12,690 nucleotides of DNA from Candidatus Fermentibacterota bacterium (GTDB lineage: Bacteria; JAFGKV01): contig JAUXFG010000109.1 in the NCBI GenBank assembly GCA_030620115.1, forward strand, positions 1 to 12,690, read 5' to 3'. Shown here piece by piece: positions 2,982 to 9,788 of this stretch (positions are counted from its first letter, which is position 1; each line of letters begins with the position of its first letter). The position numbers and the translations under genes were made by a program. A model generated the notes under the pieces. It was not told the DNA's origin, did not search any database, and worked only from the letters and a program-made list of their open reading frames with translations.

Positions 2982-3101
2982 CCTCAGTCATTGCGAGGAG
3001 CCCTTCGACAAGCTCAGGATAGAATCCGCGACGAAGCAATCTCATCCGCCCATTGAGATCGCCGCGCTGTCGCTCGCGATGACCCCGGGCCTCAGTCATT
3101 G
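2982..3101. repeat. CATTGCGAGGAG / GAAGCAATCTC palindromic repeat with a nested insert
   Basis: The left arm CATTGCGAGGAG (2989-3000) plus CGACGAAGCAATCTC (3029-3043) pairs imperfectly with the right arm at 3055-3083, whose reverse complement reads GTCATCGCGAGC...GGCGATCTC. The left arm is interrupted by a segment starting CCCTTCGACAAGCTCAGGAT (3001-3020), which looks like a second repeat placed inside the first. A 12-bp direct repeat CCTCAGTCATTG occurs at 2982-2993 and 3090-3101. Similar CATTGCGAGG palindromes are widespread in several phyla. Confidence 0.65.
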
Positions 3102-3153
3102 TATGGAGGATTCCGAAAGCGTAGAGCATTTCCCGGCCTGTCCTGCTTCCAGT

Positions 3154-3196
3154 CATGAGCCTGCCGAATGGAGCTCAGTCGAAGGGCCTATCCTGA
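3154..3196. repeat. Degenerate GAGCTCAGTCGAAGGG repeat fragment
   Basis: GAGCTCAGTCGAAGGG at 3171-3186 and the nearby CCTATCCTGA (3187-3196) resemble the reverse complement of the segment at 3001-3022 (CCCTTCGACAAGCTCAGGATAG), with AGT replacing CTTG. ATGAGCCTGCCGAATGG just upstream is another degenerate version. It lies about 50 bp before the regulator gene. Confidence 0.5.
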
Positions 3197-3225
3197 AACA
3201 TCCCAAAAACCCTTGCGCGATGATC

Positions 3226-3237
3226 ATATGCACATAT
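3226..3237. promoter_or_regulatory. AT-rich dyad upstream of the ArsR-methyltransferase gene, possible operator
   Basis: ATATG-CA-CATAT is a 5-bp-arm dyad 12 bp before the ATG, in an AT-rich patch that contrasts with the GC-rich surroundings. ArsR-family repressors commonly bind such AT-rich dyads in their own promoter. Whether this matches a SahR operator could not be tested. Confidence 0.35.
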
Positions 3238-3249
3238 CTTTATACGATT

Positions 3250-4191
3250 ATGAACCTTGATGAAGCCAAAAACCTCTTTGGTGTGCTGGCCGATTTCACA
3301 CGGCTCAGGCTTCTCTTTGCGCTCAGCATCGAGACGCAGACGGTGTCGGAGCTCGTGGCTGCGCTCGATATAAGTCAGCCCCGTGTTTCGCATCACCTTG
3401 CCCTGCTCCTGAAGACAGGGCTGGTCACCGTGCTCCGAGAAGGGCCGAGGGCGTACTATTCGTTGGCACCGTCGAAAGAGAGTAAGGAACTGGTTTCAAA
3501 GGTTCTATCTAGGATTGACGAGGATCCGGTGCTCGTTCGAGACAATGTCCGCATTCTCCGGCAGATCGGCAGACGGAAGGCGGCAAGCCAAGCCTTTTTC
3601 TCTGATCTTGCCGGGAGATGGCCGGGCAAAATCGGCAAATGGATAGATCTCCCGCGATACAAGTCGTTGCTAATTCATCTCCTCCCTTCAGGGCTCACCA
3701 CAGCGGATCTTGGATGTGGGCCGGGATGGTTGCTCCCTGAGATGGCTTCTCGGGCTCCCAGGATCATCGGTGTGGATCACTCGCCGGACTTTTTGGCCAT
3801 AGCACGCCAACATGCGGCGGAAAGCGGGCTGGCGAATTGCGAGTTCCGGCTGGGAGAGCTTGAGCACCTCCCTCTCGGAGATGGCGAAATCCAACTCGTG
3901 GTGATGGGCCTCATCCTTCACTATCTCGTGGATCCAAGAGCGGCATTGTGTGAGGCTGCTCGCATAGCCAAAGACGACGCGCAGCTTCTCGTGGTTGAGC
4001 CACTCAGACATACCCTAGCTCAGGCCAGGCTCGAGCTCGGTGAGATCTGGATGGGCTTCAGCAAAGCGGAGCTTACGGCATGGATCAGGGAGGCGGGATT
4101 CAAGCCGTCCGTAGTCGAAACGGTGCCTCCGCAGCCCGGCAAGCTGGGGCTGTTGGCGATTCGTGCAGCGAAGAAGACATTGTCTCAATAA
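3250..4191 (+). CDS. ArsR-type HTH fused to SAM-methyltransferase domain, SahR-like regulator
   Basis: A 313-residue two-domain protein. Residues about 1-85 form an ArsR winged helix ('LADFTRLRLLFALS', recognition helix region 'ISQPRVSHHLALLLKTGLV', wing 'VLREGPRAYYSL'). The metal-binding ELCVCD motif is absent, since the equivalent is 'TVSELVAAL', so metal sensing is unlikely. Residues about 130-300 are a class I SAM-dependent methyltransferase fold with motif I 'ADLGCGPGW' (152-160), 'GVDHSPDFLAIAR' and 'LGELEHLPLGDGEIQLVV'. From established knowledge, ArsR-methyltransferase fusions next to ahcY are known as SahR, a repressor of methyl-cycle genes that responds to S-adenosylhomocysteine. 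The gene sits directly upstream of ahcY, so the same role is inferred. The start ATG 3250 fits the domain onset but has no clear Shine-Dalgarno, so a short-leader or leaderless mRNA is possible. An upstream ATG at 3220 is equally unsupported. An enzymatic methyltransferase role is not excluded. Confidence 0.85.
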   Translation: MNLDEAKNLFGVLADFTRLRLLFALSIETQTVSELVAALDISQPRVSHHLALLLKTGLVTVLREGPRAYYSLAPSKESKELVSKVLSRIDEDPVLVRDNVRILRQIGRRKAASQAFFSDLAGRWPGKIGKWIDLPRYKSLLIHLLPSGLTTADLGCGPGWLLPEMASRAPRIIGVDHSPDFLAIARQHAAESGLANCEFRLGELEHLPLGDGEIQLVVMGLILHYLVDPRAALCEAARIAKDDAQLLVVEPLRHTLAQARLELGEIWMGFSKAELTAWIREAGFKPSVVETVPPQPGKLGLLAIRAAKKTLSQ

Positions 4192-4298: not shown

Positions 4299-4308
4299 GA
4301 AGATGAGA

Positions 4309-4317
4309 TGCTAGAAT
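4309..4317 (+). promoter_or_regulatory. Possible extended -10 element near the right end of the MITE
   Basis: TGCTAGAAT resembles an extended -10 (TGnTAnAAT) about 42 bp before the ahcY start. No -35 match is seen, so this is a weak candidate for a MITE-borne ahcY promoter. Confidence 0.2.
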
Positions 4318-4343
4318 GTGAAGTTATTCCTGCGCGAACCCTA

Positions 4344-4350
4344 AGAAAGG
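4344..4350 (+). promoter_or_regulatory. Shine-Dalgarno that sets the GTG start of ahcY
   Basis: AGAAAGG lies 8 nt before GTG 4359 and just outside the MITE. This favours a start where homology begins over the longer open frame from 4308. Confidence 0.65.
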
Positions 4351-4358
4351 TGTTGACC

Positions 4359-5612
4359 GTGAACTACAAAGTAGCTGACATGGGGCTTGCCCCCCAAGGC
4401 AAAGAAAAAATGCGATGGGCCGAGGCCCGAATGCCTGTTCTCTCGGCTCTTCGCAAACGGTATAGTGAAACCAAACCATTGAAGGGCATGCGAGTCGCGG
4501 GGTGTCTCCATGTGACGAAGGAGACGGCGGTGCTCGTCAAGACGCTGGTCGCCGTCGGCGCGGATGTTTCTTGGAGTGGATGCAATCCTCTCTCTACTCA
4601 GGACGACGTGGCCGCCGCCTTGGCGGCAGAGAATATCTCGATCTTCGCCTGGCACGGCATGAGCGTTGACGAGTTCTACTGGGCAATTGACAAAACGCTC
4701 GACTTCAAGCCAACTCTTACTCTTGATGACGGTTCCGATCTCATCTTCCGAGTGCACAGCTCCCAGCCGGAACTTGCCGAGGGTATCCTGGGCGGTACGG
4801 AGGAGACCACCACGGGAGTGCATCGGCTTCGGGCCATGGCGCGTGCCGGCAAGCTCCTTTATCCGGTGATCGCCGTGAATGACGCAGAAACGAAGTGGGA
4901 CTTCGACAATGTATACGGTACCGGGCAGTCCTCTATCGACGGCATCCTGCGCGCCACCAGTATCATGCTCGCGGGCAAGGTGTTCGTCGTGGCGGGCTAC
5001 GGGCACTGCGGAAAAGGTTGCGCCATGCGGGCGAAAGGCATGGGAGCCAACGTAGTGGTGACGGAAGTCAAACCCACGGCTGCGCTCAAGGCAACATTGG
5101 ATGGTTTCCGCGTCATGCAGATGGATGATGCTGCCAAGATCGGTGATATCTTCATCACCGCAACCGGCATGAAGGATGTGATTGTGAGCAGGCACTTCGC
5201 CTCAATGAAGGAGGGCGCGGTGGTCTGCAATACGGGCCACTATGACTGCGAAATCAACATCCCTGACCTGGAGAGGCTGGCGGAGCGATCGACCGAGATC
5301 AGACTAAACTGCGAAGAATATGTTCTATCCGGCGGGAAGAGAGTTTATCTTCTTGCCAAAGGACGATTGGTAAATCTTGCCGCAGCCGAAGGCCATCCAA
5401 GCGAGGTGATGGATATGAGCTTCGCCAACCAGCTTATGTCCCTTCTGCGATTGAGCAAACACGGGGCTCAAATGGAGAAGCAGGTCTACGACGTGCCGGA
5501 AGAACAAGACCAGGATATTGCGAGACTGAAGCTCGAGACCAATGGTCTCTCCATCGATACGCTTACTCCCGAGCAGCTGGCCTATCTCGAGGATTACGCC
5601 GCAGGGACCTAG
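4359..5612 (+). CDS. ahcY: S-adenosylhomocysteinase (short form)
   Basis: Hydrolyses S-adenosylhomocysteine reversibly to adenosine and homocysteine in the cytoplasm, relieving product inhibition of methyltransferases. The 417-residue enzyme uses bound NAD. Visible elements are the substrate residues D124 in 'LDDGSD', 'EETTTGVHRL' (148-157), 'NDAETKWDFDNVYGTGQS' (174-191, with K179, D183 and N184), the Rossmann motif 'GYGHCGKG' (213-220), 'NTGHYDCEIN' (291-300) and 'EGHPSEVMDMSFANQ' (344-358). The 'GTGQSSIDGILRAT' signature, the lack of the roughly 40-residue insert seen in eukaryotic and many proteobacterial forms, and the C-terminus ending in GT resemble the archaeal/Thermotoga short type. 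The start is GTG 4359, with AGAAAGG 8 nt upstream. The frame is open to an ATG at 4308, but that would begin inside the upstream MITE. The likely regulator of the gene lies upstream, and a protease gene starts 10 bp after the stop. Confidence 0.96.
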   Translation: MNYKVADMGLAPQGKEKMRWAEARMPVLSALRKRYSETKPLKGMRVAGCLHVTKETAVLVKTLVAVGADVSWSGCNPLSTQDDVAAALAAENISIFAWHGMSVDEFYWAIDKTLDFKPTLTLDDGSDLIFRVHSSQPELAEGILGGTEETTTGVHRLRAMARAGKLLYPVIAVNDAETKWDFDNVYGTGQSSIDGILRATSIMLAGKVFVVAGYGHCGKGCAMRAKGMGANVVVTEVKPTAALKATLDGFRVMQMDDAAKIGDIFITATGMKDVIVSRHFASMKEGAVVCNTGHYDCEINIPDLERLAERSTEIRLNCEEYVLSGGKRVYLLAKGRLVNLAAAEGHPSEVMDMSFANQLMSLLRLSKHGAQMEKQVYDVPEEQDQDIARLKLETNGLSIDTLTPEQLAYLEDYAAGT

Positions 5613-7026: not shown

Positions 7027-7566
7027 TTATAGCTGCTTCCACTCCATGCCTAGTGCCGTCACGAAATCTCTTGGCTCAGGATGCGAGTCGGAAAGGTTCT
7101 TCCGGAGTTCGATGGTATTGAGAATCTCGTACCCTTCCGCCCGCGCGAGGCGAATCATGGCGTGATTATGCGGCACGCACGAGATGCACGCCATCTCTTG
7201 GCTTCTTGTCAGAAGCCATGCTTCGAAATGCGCAATGAGCGCCTTCGCAATACCACGCCCTCGGAAGCCAGGCTTGACGAAAAGCTCCCTGGTGAAGTAG
7301 AACTCATCCCGCAGTTCCCACCGGCGGAATGCAAGCACATCGAGGCCGTCCACCGCCACGAAATAGCCGCCATGCGGACTGGAAAGATGATTCGTCACCT
7401 CTGCAATCGCATCATCCAGCGAAAACGTCTTCTGTGATCCCAACAATTGGTGATGCTCGTTCCAGAAACCACATACGAGTTGCGCAAGGATGGAGATATC
7501 GTCTTTAACCGCGGCTCTCACATGTATGTCCAGAATCAGTTCTCCTTTTCCCGCTTCGCGAACCAT
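7027..7566 (-). CDS. GNAT-family N-acetyltransferase
   Basis: A cytoplasmic acetyl-CoA-dependent acyltransferase of the GNAT superfamily, about 179 residues, substrate unknown. The N-terminal 'IHVRAAVKDDISILAQLV' is the usual first strand and helix. The strand 'YFVAVDGLDVLAFRRWELRDEFYFTRELFV' leads into motif A 'KPGFRGRGIAKALIAHFEAW' with the acetyl-CoA pyrophosphate loop R-G-R-G-I-A (102-107). Motif B follows as 'HNHAMIRLARAEGYEI'. The ATG at 7566-7564 shares one base with the TGA stop of the desulfurase-SelD gene, suggesting translational coupling. A GTG lies one codon further upstream. An AAAAGGAG sequence sits inside the frame at 7542-7549, upstream of an ATT (7536) and a CTG (7533), so a shorter protein starting near 'LDIHVRAA' is possible. 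The context suggests co-expression with selenium metabolism, but no mechanistic link is seen. Confidence 0.85.
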   Translation of the reverse strand: MVREAGKGELILDIHVRAAVKDDISILAQLVCGFWNEHHQLLGSQKTFSLDDAIAEVTNHLSSPHGGYFVAVDGLDVLAFRRWELRDEFYFTRELFVKPGFRGRGIAKALIAHFEAWLLTRSQEMACISCVPHNHAMIRLARAEGYEILNTIELRKNLSDSHPEPRDFVTALGMEWKQL

Positions 7567-9788
7567 CACGAAACACTCCCTGATATCACATGTATTCGGC
7601 CTTCTCCCCGCGTCTTGCAGAGACCGATGATGGCGGCGGCGTGGACCCCCGCATCCCTCAGGGCTTGAACCATCCGGTCACCATGCGCAGGCGTCACGGC
7701 AATAAGCAGCCCTCCTGATGTCTGCGCGTCGGTCAGCACAAGACGCATCGACCGAGGGATCTTATTTCCCCATGATACGATTCCTTCCACATACTCGAGA
7801 TTATTGAGTGTTCCCCCAGGTATGATACCGCTGGCGGCGAAATCCCTGGCCTCCTTGAGGAACGGAACTGCATTCGCCCAGATCTCAACATCCACCTTGC
7901 TGCCGCGCGACATCTCGCGCAGGTGTCCCAACAGACCGAATCCCGTGACATCGGTACAGCCGGAAACATCGAAGTCTCGCATGACATGCGCGGCATCTTT
8001 GTTGAGCCTTCCCATGATATCCGCAACTCGGTCTTCCAAGGCACGGTCGGTCAATCCTCGCTTGATTGCAGTGGATATGAGGCCGACCCCCAGGGGCTTT
8101 GTCAGGACCAGCAGATCTCCAGGACGGGCTCCACTGTTGGTCAATATCCTCCCGGGATCGACCAAGCCGGTCACTACCAACCCATACTTGGGTTCGATAT
8201 CGTCCACCGTGTGCCCGCCGACAATGCAGATTCCCGCTTCCTTCGCCTTGTCCTGTGCTCCTCTGAGGATGTCCTCAAGCACCGACATTGGAAGTCTATT
8301 GGAGGGAAAGCCCACGATGTTGAGGGCGAACAATGGCGTACCGCCCATGGCATAGATGTCACTCAACGCATTTGCGGCGGCTATGGCTCCAAACGTGTAG
8401 GGATCGTCAACCACCGGTGTAAAAAAATCTACTGTCTGCACCAAAACATGGCCATCGTCCAACCGGTATACGGCCGCATCGTCGCCGGTCTCAGGGCCCA
8501 CGAGAAGGTTGGCATCGCGGGGAGCTGAGAGGGTAGCCAATACTCGTTCCAATGCCTGGGGCCGCAACTTGCATGCACATCCAAGGCCATGTGTGTAATG
8601 GGTAAGCTTGATCTCCTTCTCGCCCGAGACCATGTGTGTATGTTCGCCCCCGTGGAGTAGCCTGCCCGCAACATCAGCGATCTCGTCGATGGCAGTCGTG
8701 ATCTCGTTTTCCGTGGTCATTCTGCCGGTGGAGAAGCGTATTGTGCCCATGGCGTACTCCCGGGGCGCCTCCATGGCTTCCAGCACATGCGAGATCTCCA
8801 CATCATCCGCGTGGCATGCGGCGCCAGCCGAGGCGGCGACCCCTTCGAGTTCGGCAAGCAGCGTATTGGCTTCCACGCCGGGAAACGATACACTGACTGT
8901 ATTGGGCAGCCTGAGATCAAGATGCCCATTGAGGCGGATCTCTGGGAGCCGTTCTTTGAGGCCCTCGTACAATCGATCCCGCAGCTTCCGGCAATGTCGT
9001 CCATCATCTGCAAGTCGCGTGCGCGCTATCTCGCACGCTTTTCCCAGCCCCACGATCTCCAGTACATTCTCGGTGCCGGCCCGGATATCCCTTTCATGGT
9101 CTGCCCCGTGGATGAGCTTCACCAGTCGTGTACCGTGCCTCACATAAAGCGCACCGATTCCCTTGGGTGCGTAGAGCTTGTGCCCAGCCACGGTGAGCAG
9201 ATCAACACCTAGATCATTCACATCCACAGGAATCTTGCCCGCCGATTGAGCTGCATCCGTGTGCACCAATATATGGTGTTCATGTGCTACTGAAGCTATC
9301 CGCTCGATGGGTTGGATCGTACCGACCTCATTATTGGCATGCATGATCGTCACAAGAATCGTTTCCGGGCGTATGGCTTGTTGGAGGGCTCCCATGTCAA
9401 TGCGACCGGTAGAATCCACCGGGAGATAGGTGACCTGGAATCCCTGTGTTTCGAGATACCGGCACACCTCCATCACCGCCGGATGTTCGATGGAGGACGT
9501 AATGATATGGTCACCTTTGGTGCGGTAAGCCTCGGCTACCCCCTTGATGGCAAGATTATTCGCTTCGCTCCCCCCGCTGGTGAACACCAGCTCGTCGGAT
9601 TCGCAACCAAGCAGCGAGGCAACCTGCGCCCGAGCCTGCTCCACCGCTCTCTTCGCCTGAGAACCAAACCAATGGGCGCTGGAAGGATTGCCGAAGAACT
9701 CCGACAGGTAAGGCTTCATGGCCTCAGCCACGGCGGGATCAATGGGAGTTGTCGCGTTGTAATCCAGATAGATAGGTTTGGTTGTCAT
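7566..9788 (-). CDS. selD: Cysteine desulfurase (NifS/IscS-type) fused to selenophosphate synthetase (SelD)
   Basis: A 740-residue bifunctional protein. Residues 1 to about 380 form a class V PLP aminotransferase-fold cysteine desulfurase: 'YLDYNATTP' at the N-terminus, PLP-stacking H102 ('SIEHPAV'), 'HANNEVG' (150-156), D178 and Q181, PLP lysine K204 ('AGHKLYAPKG') and catalytic C325 ('SAGAACHAD'). Residues about 390-740 form SelD, an AIR synthase-related ATPase that makes selenophosphate from selenide and ATP. Its N-terminal active-site loop is 'THGLGCACKL', with C404, C406 and K407 at the positions of E. coli Cys17, Cys19 and Lys20. The active-site residue is encoded by TGT, so this is a Cys and not a Sec SelD. 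The two domains are in one continuous frame with a short His/Gly-rich linker (about 378-392). An ATG at codon 386 could allow separate SelD initiation. The fusion would let the desulfurase hand selenium from selenocysteine or cysteine directly to SelD (inference). The start ATG 9788 has only a weak Shine-Dalgarno. Confidence 0.94.
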   Translation of the reverse strand: MTTKPIYLDYNATTPIDPAVAEAMKPYLSEFFGNPSSAHWFGSQAKRAVEQARAQVASLLGCESDELVFTSGGSEANNLAIKGVAEAYRTKGDHIITSSIEHPAVMEVCRYLETQGFQVTYLPVDSTGRIDMGALQQAIRPETILVTIMHANNEVGTIQPIERIASVAHEHHILVHTDAAQSAGKIPVDVNDLGVDLLTVAGHKLYAPKGIGALYVRHGTRLVKLIHGADHERDIRAGTENVLEIVGLGKACEIARTRLADDGRHCRKLRDRLYEGLKERLPEIRLNGHLDLRLPNTVSVSFPGVEANTLLAELEGVAASAGAACHADDVEISHVLEAMEAPREYAMGTIRFSTGRMTTENEITTAIDEIADVAGRLLHGGEHTHMVSGEKEIKLTHYTHGLGCACKLRPQALERVLATLSAPRDANLLVGPETGDDAAVYRLDDGHVLVQTVDFFTPVVDDPYTFGAIAAANALSDIYAMGGTPLFALNIVGFPSNRLPMSVLEDILRGAQDKAKEAGICIVGGHTVDDIEPKYGLVVTGLVDPGRILTNSGARPGDLLVLTKPLGVGLISTAIKRGLTDRALEDRVADIMGRLNKDAAHVMRDFDVSGCTDVTGFGLLGHLREMSRGSKVDVEIWANAVPFLKEARDFAASGIIPGGTLNNLEYVEGIVSWGNKIPRSMRLVLTDAQTSGGLLIAVTPAHGDRMVQALRDAGVHAAAIIGLCKTRGEGRIHVISGSVS

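What the first reader, a model, noticed from the sequence alone, without database searches (positions are those of the whole stretch)
7566..9788. Cysteine desulfurase and selenophosphate synthetase fused in one reading frame
Both halves keep their catalytic residues: PLP lysine K204 and cysteine C325 in the desulfurase half, and C404/K407 in the SelD loop. The protein is therefore plausibly bifunctional, mobilising selenium from selenocysteine and channelling it to selenophosphate synthesis. In most bacteria these are separate proteins. I recall that NifS-SelD fusions have been noted in comparative surveys of selenium use, so the architecture may be rare and not new. The short His/Gly linker and the internal ATG at codon 386 raise the question of whether free SelD is also made.
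Basis: partly seen in the sequence, partly recalled or inferred. Interest (0 to 1): 0.6.

Follow-up and report, generated by a model that had tools for sequence, protein, structure and literature searches.

The report
Selenocysteine lyase–SelD fusion enzyme (Cys type)
One gene makes a two-part enzyme whose first half should strip selenium from the amino acid selenocysteine and whose second half should turn that selenium into the cell's activated form; the architecture has been reported before in a few organisms, but it proves to be a widespread family that often sits beside a second, selenium-containing version of the same enzyme.

Summary
Window 7566-9788, minus strand, is one uninterrupted 740-codon frame: a NifS/IscS-type half (1-377) joined to a complete SelD (390-733). 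K204, C325, C404 and K407 are all present. It is not an assembly error: 69 of the 80 best loci in a scan of 84,980 genomes carry both halves in one frame, in about 16 phylum-level groups. All aligned copies keep both catalytic cysteines. The SelD halves form one clade. The architecture is known (Geobacter FRC-32; Zhang 2008, Mariotti 2015), so this is a new member of a known kind.

What the tools add: (1) the lyase active-site segment (SAGAACHxD) resembles mammalian selenocysteine lyase, with His326 invariant, but the published Sec-specificity residue (Asp146) is Pro here. (2) The genome has selA, selB and tRNA-Sec, and no mnmH, so selenophosphate goes to selenocysteine. (3) It also has a separate SelD that is itself a selenoprotein (in-frame UGA at the catalytic Cys); half of the sampled fusion genomes share this pairing. 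(4) In Bacteroidota the fusion often lies just behind mnmH. Most likely function: selenium recycled from selenocysteine is handed to SelD in one chain. Direct transfer is inferred. Free SelD from Met386 is not supported.

The parts
7566..9788 (-). Gene for the 740-aa selenocysteine lyase/cysteine desulfurase-SelD fusion, with stop codon
8658..9788 (-). Lyase (NifS/IscS-fold) half, residues 1-377; PLP Lys204, catalytic Cys325, His326
   Evidence: fold match to IscS, Nfs1 and human/rat selenocysteine lyase
8622..8657 (-). Linker, residues 378-389, pLDDT < 50 over 382-389; contains Met386
7590..8621 (-). SelD half, residues 390-733; catalytic loop GLGCACK (C404, C406, K407)
7027..7566 (-). GNAT acetyltransferase gene; its ATG overlaps the fusion stop (TGATG), so probably co-translated; a link to selenium is not shown and it did not recur as a fusion neighbour

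Best explanation
The gene encodes a bifunctional selenium-recycling enzyme. The N-terminal PLP domain cleaves L-selenocysteine to alanine and loads the selenium on Cys325 as a sulfoselenide. The mobile Cys325 loop then hands it, as selenide or directly, to the flexible Cys404/Lys407 loop of the SelD domain, which makes selenophosphate with ATP. In this genome the product feeds selenocysteine synthesis (SelA, tRNA-Sec, SelB), including production of a second, stand-alone SelD that is itself a selenoprotein. In Bacteroidota relatives it feeds MnmH (tRNA 2-selenouridine). Shown by sequence: the fusion, the intact catalytic residues, the selenophosphate users, and the clade. Inferred: selenocysteine preference over cysteine, direct transfer, and the relation to the second SelD.
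For: Domain models cover both halves fully. Catalytic residues of both halves are invariant in 59 proteins: H102, D178, Q181, K204, C325; C404, C406, K407, D437, D454, D477, D613. The active-site segment of a natural fusion homologue finds human and rat selenocysteine lyase as its top PDB matches, above every IscS, though E is only about 0.002. H326 corresponds to hSCL H389, which is His in Sec-specific enzymes and Thr/Ala in non-specific ones (PMC3266270), and the genome's own stand-alone NifS has Ala there. selA 7e-167, selB 1e-98, tRNA-Sec 75 bits, no mnmH. Of 42 fusion genomes 29 have SelA, 10 have MnmH and 36 have at least one. mnmH is the most frequent conserved neighbour, directly upstream with gaps of 5-18 bp among those sampled. 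Low pLDDT falls on the two Cys loops and the linker. Literature: direct Sec lyase-to-SPS delivery proposed (PMC3266270), and trypanosome Sec lyase binds SPS through the SPS N-terminal region, which is where the lyase is fused here (PMC7595633).
Against: The hSCL residue shown to fix Sec specificity (Asp146) is an invariant Pro103 here, as in the genome's ordinary NifS, and hSCL Val256 is Ala201, so cysteine may also be used. Overall the lyase half matches IscS/Nfs1 better than Sec lyase. The model is one chain with pTM 0.76 and no readable coordinates, so C325-C404 proximity is untested. There is no biochemistry. The lyase half also occurs unfused, so fusion is not obligatory.
Confidence: 0.8

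Rival explanations
1. The N-terminal half is an ordinary cysteine desulfurase. It uses abundant cysteine, and the fusion mainly anchors a general chalcogen donor to SelD (which would exclude or reject sulfur).
For: Group-I desulfurases usually act on both substrates (PMC3266270); the Asp146 determinant is absent (Pro103); overall identity is highest to IscS/Nfs1.
Against: His326 and the AACHxD segment are invariant or nearly so and differ from IscS/NifS (TSASLEPSYVL / ASGSLQPSHVL); the genome has its own separate NifS (L007); the IscS C-terminal tail after about residue 380 is replaced by the linker.
Confidence: 0.3
2. The two halves work independently. The fusion is only a way to co-express them and selenide diffuses freely between them.
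For: Linker lengths vary moderately (45 residues between the RFSTG and SelD motifs in the window, 43-47 in most homologues, up to 78), its sequence is not conserved, and its confidence is low; lyase and SelD are separate neighbouring genes elsewhere, e.g. sclA-selD in Enterococcus faecalis.
Against: The fused form is kept across about 16 phylum-level groups; published Sec lyase-SPS binding uses the SPS N-terminus (PMC7595633).
Confidence: 0.35
3. An internal start at Met386 also yields free SelD.
For: An in-frame ATG stands 18 codons before C404, with a GGGGG run about 13 bases upstream.
Against: A Met at that place is not conserved: 19 of 65 relatives have any Met in the 30 residues before the motif, at scattered positions, some only in the motif itself; the genome already has a stand-alone SelD.
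Confidence: 0.07
4. Assembly or sequencing artefact joining two genes.
For: None beyond the fact that the genome is a draft of 296 contigs.
Against: 69 loci from independent genomes, including a contig titled as a chromosome (L063), carry the same fusion; G001 of the same family has it too.
Confidence: 0.01

Closest known systems
NifS-SelD fusion of Geobacter sp. FRC-32 and the NifS-SPS fusions of Acanthamoeba and Naegleria (Zhang 2008 PMC2398784; Mariotti 2015 PMC4561486)
   Same: Same order: desulfurase N-terminal, SelD C-terminal, in one frame
   Different: The Geobacter protein has Sec at the SelD active site; this protein and all 65 relatives in which the motif was read have Cys (GCACK, or GCPCK in one). 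69 loci found here against two bacterial instances reported in 2015
Ndh-SelD fusion (NADH dehydrogenase-like + SelD; PMC2398784)
   Same: N-terminal partner fused to a Cys-type SelD; the paper reports a CxxC motif in all of them
   Different: Different partner; no Ndh domain here
Mammalian selenocysteine lyase (human SCL, PDB 3GZC; rat 3A9X)
   Same: Fold, catalytic Lys and Cys, the AACHSD-type segment with His after the catalytic Cys
   Different: Lacks Asp146 and Val256 equivalents (Pro103, Ala201); fused to SelD
SclA-SelD gene pair of Enterococcus faecalis
   Same: Sec lyase gene directly before selD in an operon
   Different: SclA is a divergent family (fusion scores 138 bits against the 525-bit cut-off); separate genes; with yqeB/yqeC and xdh (Se cofactor trait)

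Membership tests
Selenophosphate synthetase SelD | Full-length AIRS fold scoring over curated SelD cut-offs | tested here: met
   TIGR00476 401 bits (cut-off 125), PRK00943 381 (299)
Selenophosphate synthetase SelD | Catalytic Cys/Sec and Lys in the Gly-rich loop, plus conserved Asp residues | tested here: met
   C404, K407, D437, D454, D477, D613 invariant
Selenophosphate synthetase SelD | Makes selenophosphate from selenide and ATP | not testable with these tools
   needs biochemistry or E. coli selD complementation
NifS-SelD fusion | Group-I desulfurase N-terminal to SelD in one open frame | tested here: met
NifS-SelD fusion | Sec at the SelD active site, as in Geobacter FRC-32 (a trait of that one member, not a requirement of the architecture) | tested here: not met
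   Cys in the window protein and in all relatives read; Mariotti 2015 names Geobacter FRC-32 as the single exception to Cys among fused SelDs
Selenocysteine lyase (Sec-specific) | PLP Lys and catalytic Cys of group-I NifS-like enzymes | tested here: met
   K204, C325
Selenocysteine lyase (Sec-specific) | His after the catalytic Cys (hSCL H389) | tested here: met
   H326 invariant in 59 proteins
Selenocysteine lyase (Sec-specific) | Asp at hSCL position 146 (specificity determinant) | tested here: not met
   Pro103, invariant; the E. coli IscS residue in the same column is Lys, as the paper says for group I; the hSCL sequence itself was not aligned here. So it is not filed as a Sec-specific lyase, only as working like one
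Housekeeping cysteine desulfurase NifS/IscS | Scores over the NifS or IscS equivalog cut-off | tested here: not met
   492 bits against 531 (NifS), 439 against 643 (IscS)

The most novel reading that the evidence does not exclude
Division of labour between two SelDs. The Cys-type lyase-SelD fusion is the selenoprotein-independent enzyme that recycles selenium and primes synthesis of the second SelD, which cannot be made without selenocysteine; the stand-alone Sec-SelD is then the high-capacity enzyme for fresh selenide. The pairing (fusion GCxCK, partner nearly always GUA[A/S/G/C]K) would be a solution to the start-up problem of a selenoprotein SelD.
Probability: 0.25. Interest if true: 0.65.

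Novelty: new member of a known kind. Interest (0 to 1): 0.42.

Why it matters
Which molecule delivers selenium to SelD in cells is still described as incompletely elucidated (PMC13188914). A natural fusion of a lyase carrying a Sec-lyase-like active-site segment with SelD, kept as one clade across many phyla and found with either Sec machinery or mnmH, is comparative evidence for a selenocysteine-to-selenophosphate route in bacteria and gives single-chain proteins on which direct transfer can be tested. The co-occurrence of a Cys-type fusion with a Sec-type SelD also raises a testable question about how selenoprotein SelDs are first made.

Tried and rejected
Orphan or third selenium trait: rejected as the general explanation, since 36 of 42 fusion genomes have SelA or MnmH; of the other six, three have a Sec-SelD, two are Thorarchaeota, which would use the archaeal pathway instead of SelA (my knowledge; not searched), and one is a small MAG. 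Stand-alone SelD from Met386: not conserved. Sec-containing fusion: none among the loci read. SECIS in the second SelD: Rfam gave no hit and the fold of the region after the UGA is not better than shuffles (z -0.6), so UGA decoding rests on its position at the catalytic Cys, repeated in about 30 stand-alone SelDs, and on selA/B/C. A Sec formate dehydrogenase was sought: absent over cut-off in this genome, present with one in-frame TGA in both family members G001 and G002.

Full report
Observation. The window is one whole contig, C33, of a 4.1-Mb draft genome (296 contigs, 98% complete). The finding's frame runs on the minus strand, 9788 down to 7566: 740 codons, no internal stop. Pfam and NCBIfam place a group-I NifS/IscS domain at residues 6-377 and a complete SelD at 390-733.

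Not an artefact. A scan of 84,980 genomes with the protein kept the best 80 loci. Sixty-nine of them carry both halves in one frame, in MAGs titled Calditrichota, KSB1, Zixiibacteriota, Bacteroidota, Planctomycetota, Chloroflexota, Cloacimonadota, Eiseniibacteriota, Krumholzibacteriota, Armatimonadota, Acidobacteriota, Thermodesulfobacteriota, Myxococcota, Effluviviacota, Neomarinimicrobiota and Thorarchaeota. In an alignment of 59 full-length proteins the catalytic residues of both halves are invariant. The fusion is nevertheless uncommon: in an even draw of 296 genomes of the phylum of G017 (a Bacteroidales MAG), 51 had SelD over the cut-off, and only the seed genome itself had a frame of fusion length with this architecture.

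Evolution. The SelD halves form one clade against 31 stand-alone SelDs from the same and related genomes (63 fusions, 100/99), and again when 31 stand-alone Cys SelDs from that phylum and E. coli are added (99/96). This fits one fusion event followed by spread. The fusion of G001, from the same family as the window genome, falls among Planctomycetota; holding it together with the window's fusion is rejected at p 0.014 (the pair was chosen after seeing the tree). The stand-alone Sec-SelDs of that family do cluster together. So at least one fusion in the family was probably acquired horizontally. Lyase halves of the same type also occur unfused, intermixed with the fused ones in a quick tree; two of the apparent unfused cases (L087, L092) end at or near a contig end.

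Where the selenium goes. The genome has selA (7e-167), selB (1e-98) and tRNA-Sec (75 bits), and no mnmH/ybbB. Among 42 fusion genomes 29 have SelA, 10 have MnmH and 36 have at least one. mnmH is the most frequent conserved neighbour: directly upstream on the same strand in about 10 of 62 loci, with gaps of 5-18 bp among those sampled. MAG incompleteness makes absences weak.

A second SelD. The genome also has a stand-alone SelD on contig C293 with one in-frame TGA, at the position of the catalytic Cys (GUAAK). Half of the fusion genomes searched (21 of 42) have such a partner. The fusions read GCACK (GCPCK in one) and the partners GUA[A/S/G/C]K, apart from one Cys partner (GCSAK in G017). So the fusion is not the only SelD here, and the two are different lineages. 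A hairpin lies downstream of the UGA, but its fold is not better than shuffles, so a SECIS is not shown.

The lyase half. A 42-residue active-site segment of a natural homologue finds human and rat selenocysteine lyase first in the PDB, above all IscS entries, at weak E-values. His326 corresponds to hSCL His389. The residue shown to set Sec specificity, Asp146, is Pro103 here, and Val256 is Ala201. I therefore claim it works like a selenocysteine lyase but do not file it as a Sec-specific one. The genome keeps a separate NifS with an ordinary active-site segment.

Mechanism. The lyase charges Cys325 with selenium; the SelD loop with Cys404/Lys407 makes selenophosphate. Both Cys loops and the linker are low-confidence, presumably mobile parts of the AF2 model (pLDDT 89.7, pTM 0.76). 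Published work proposes direct delivery from Sec lyase to SPS (PMC3266270) and shows that trypanosome SPS2 binds Sec lyase through its N-terminal region (PMC7595633), the end at which the lyase is fused here. Transfer within one chain is inference; no distance could be measured.

Novelty. NifS-SelD fusions were reported in Geobacter FRC-32 (PMC2398784) and as two bacterial instances plus two protists (PMC4561486). Four later surveys or reviews that I searched do not name this fusion. This is a new member of a known kind. The wide Cys-type clade, the Sec-lyase-like segment, the mnmH neighbourhood and the pairing with a Sec-SelD were not found in the papers read, which are open-access only.

Noticed in passing
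L168:1399-3459 (-), genome G104 (phylum of G017, Bacteroidota): A single 687-aa frame fuses MnmH (tRNA 2-selenouridine synthase, 358 bits) to SelD (531 bits): selenophosphate user joined to its producer. I found no report of it in the titles and abstracts searched.
   Followed up: partly
L124:1880-2952 (genome contig C293): Stand-alone SelD with in-frame TGA at the catalytic Cys, behind what looks like a ZIP-type metal transporter gene: a second, selenoprotein SelD in the window's genome.
   Followed up: yes
L034 and L077: Two Thorarchaeota MAGs carry the fusion and group together inside the bacterial fusions (100/98), one on a 471-kb contig; suggests transfer into Asgard archaea, though MAG contamination is not excluded.
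   Followed up: partly
L129:3462-4712 (G001); also L134 and L145: A SclA/SufS-like cysteine desulfurase family protein lies directly upstream of the Sec-SelD (380 bits to SclA, below its 525 cut-off): a second lyase-SelD pairing, unfused, of a different lyase lineage.
   Followed up: partly
L128:2505-6264 (G001): Genes that read like a xanthine dehydrogenase-type molybdenum hydroxylase lie near the fusion, with one opposite-strand gene between; a link to the selenium cofactor trait was not tested.
   Followed up: no
window 7027-7566 (-): GNAT acetyltransferase whose ATG overlaps the fusion stop (TGATG); it did not recur as a neighbour in the 62 loci compared.
   Followed up: partly
window 3079-4191 (+): ArsR-type regulator fused to a SAM methyltransferase, directly before adenosylhomocysteinase (4308-5612).
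   Followed up: no
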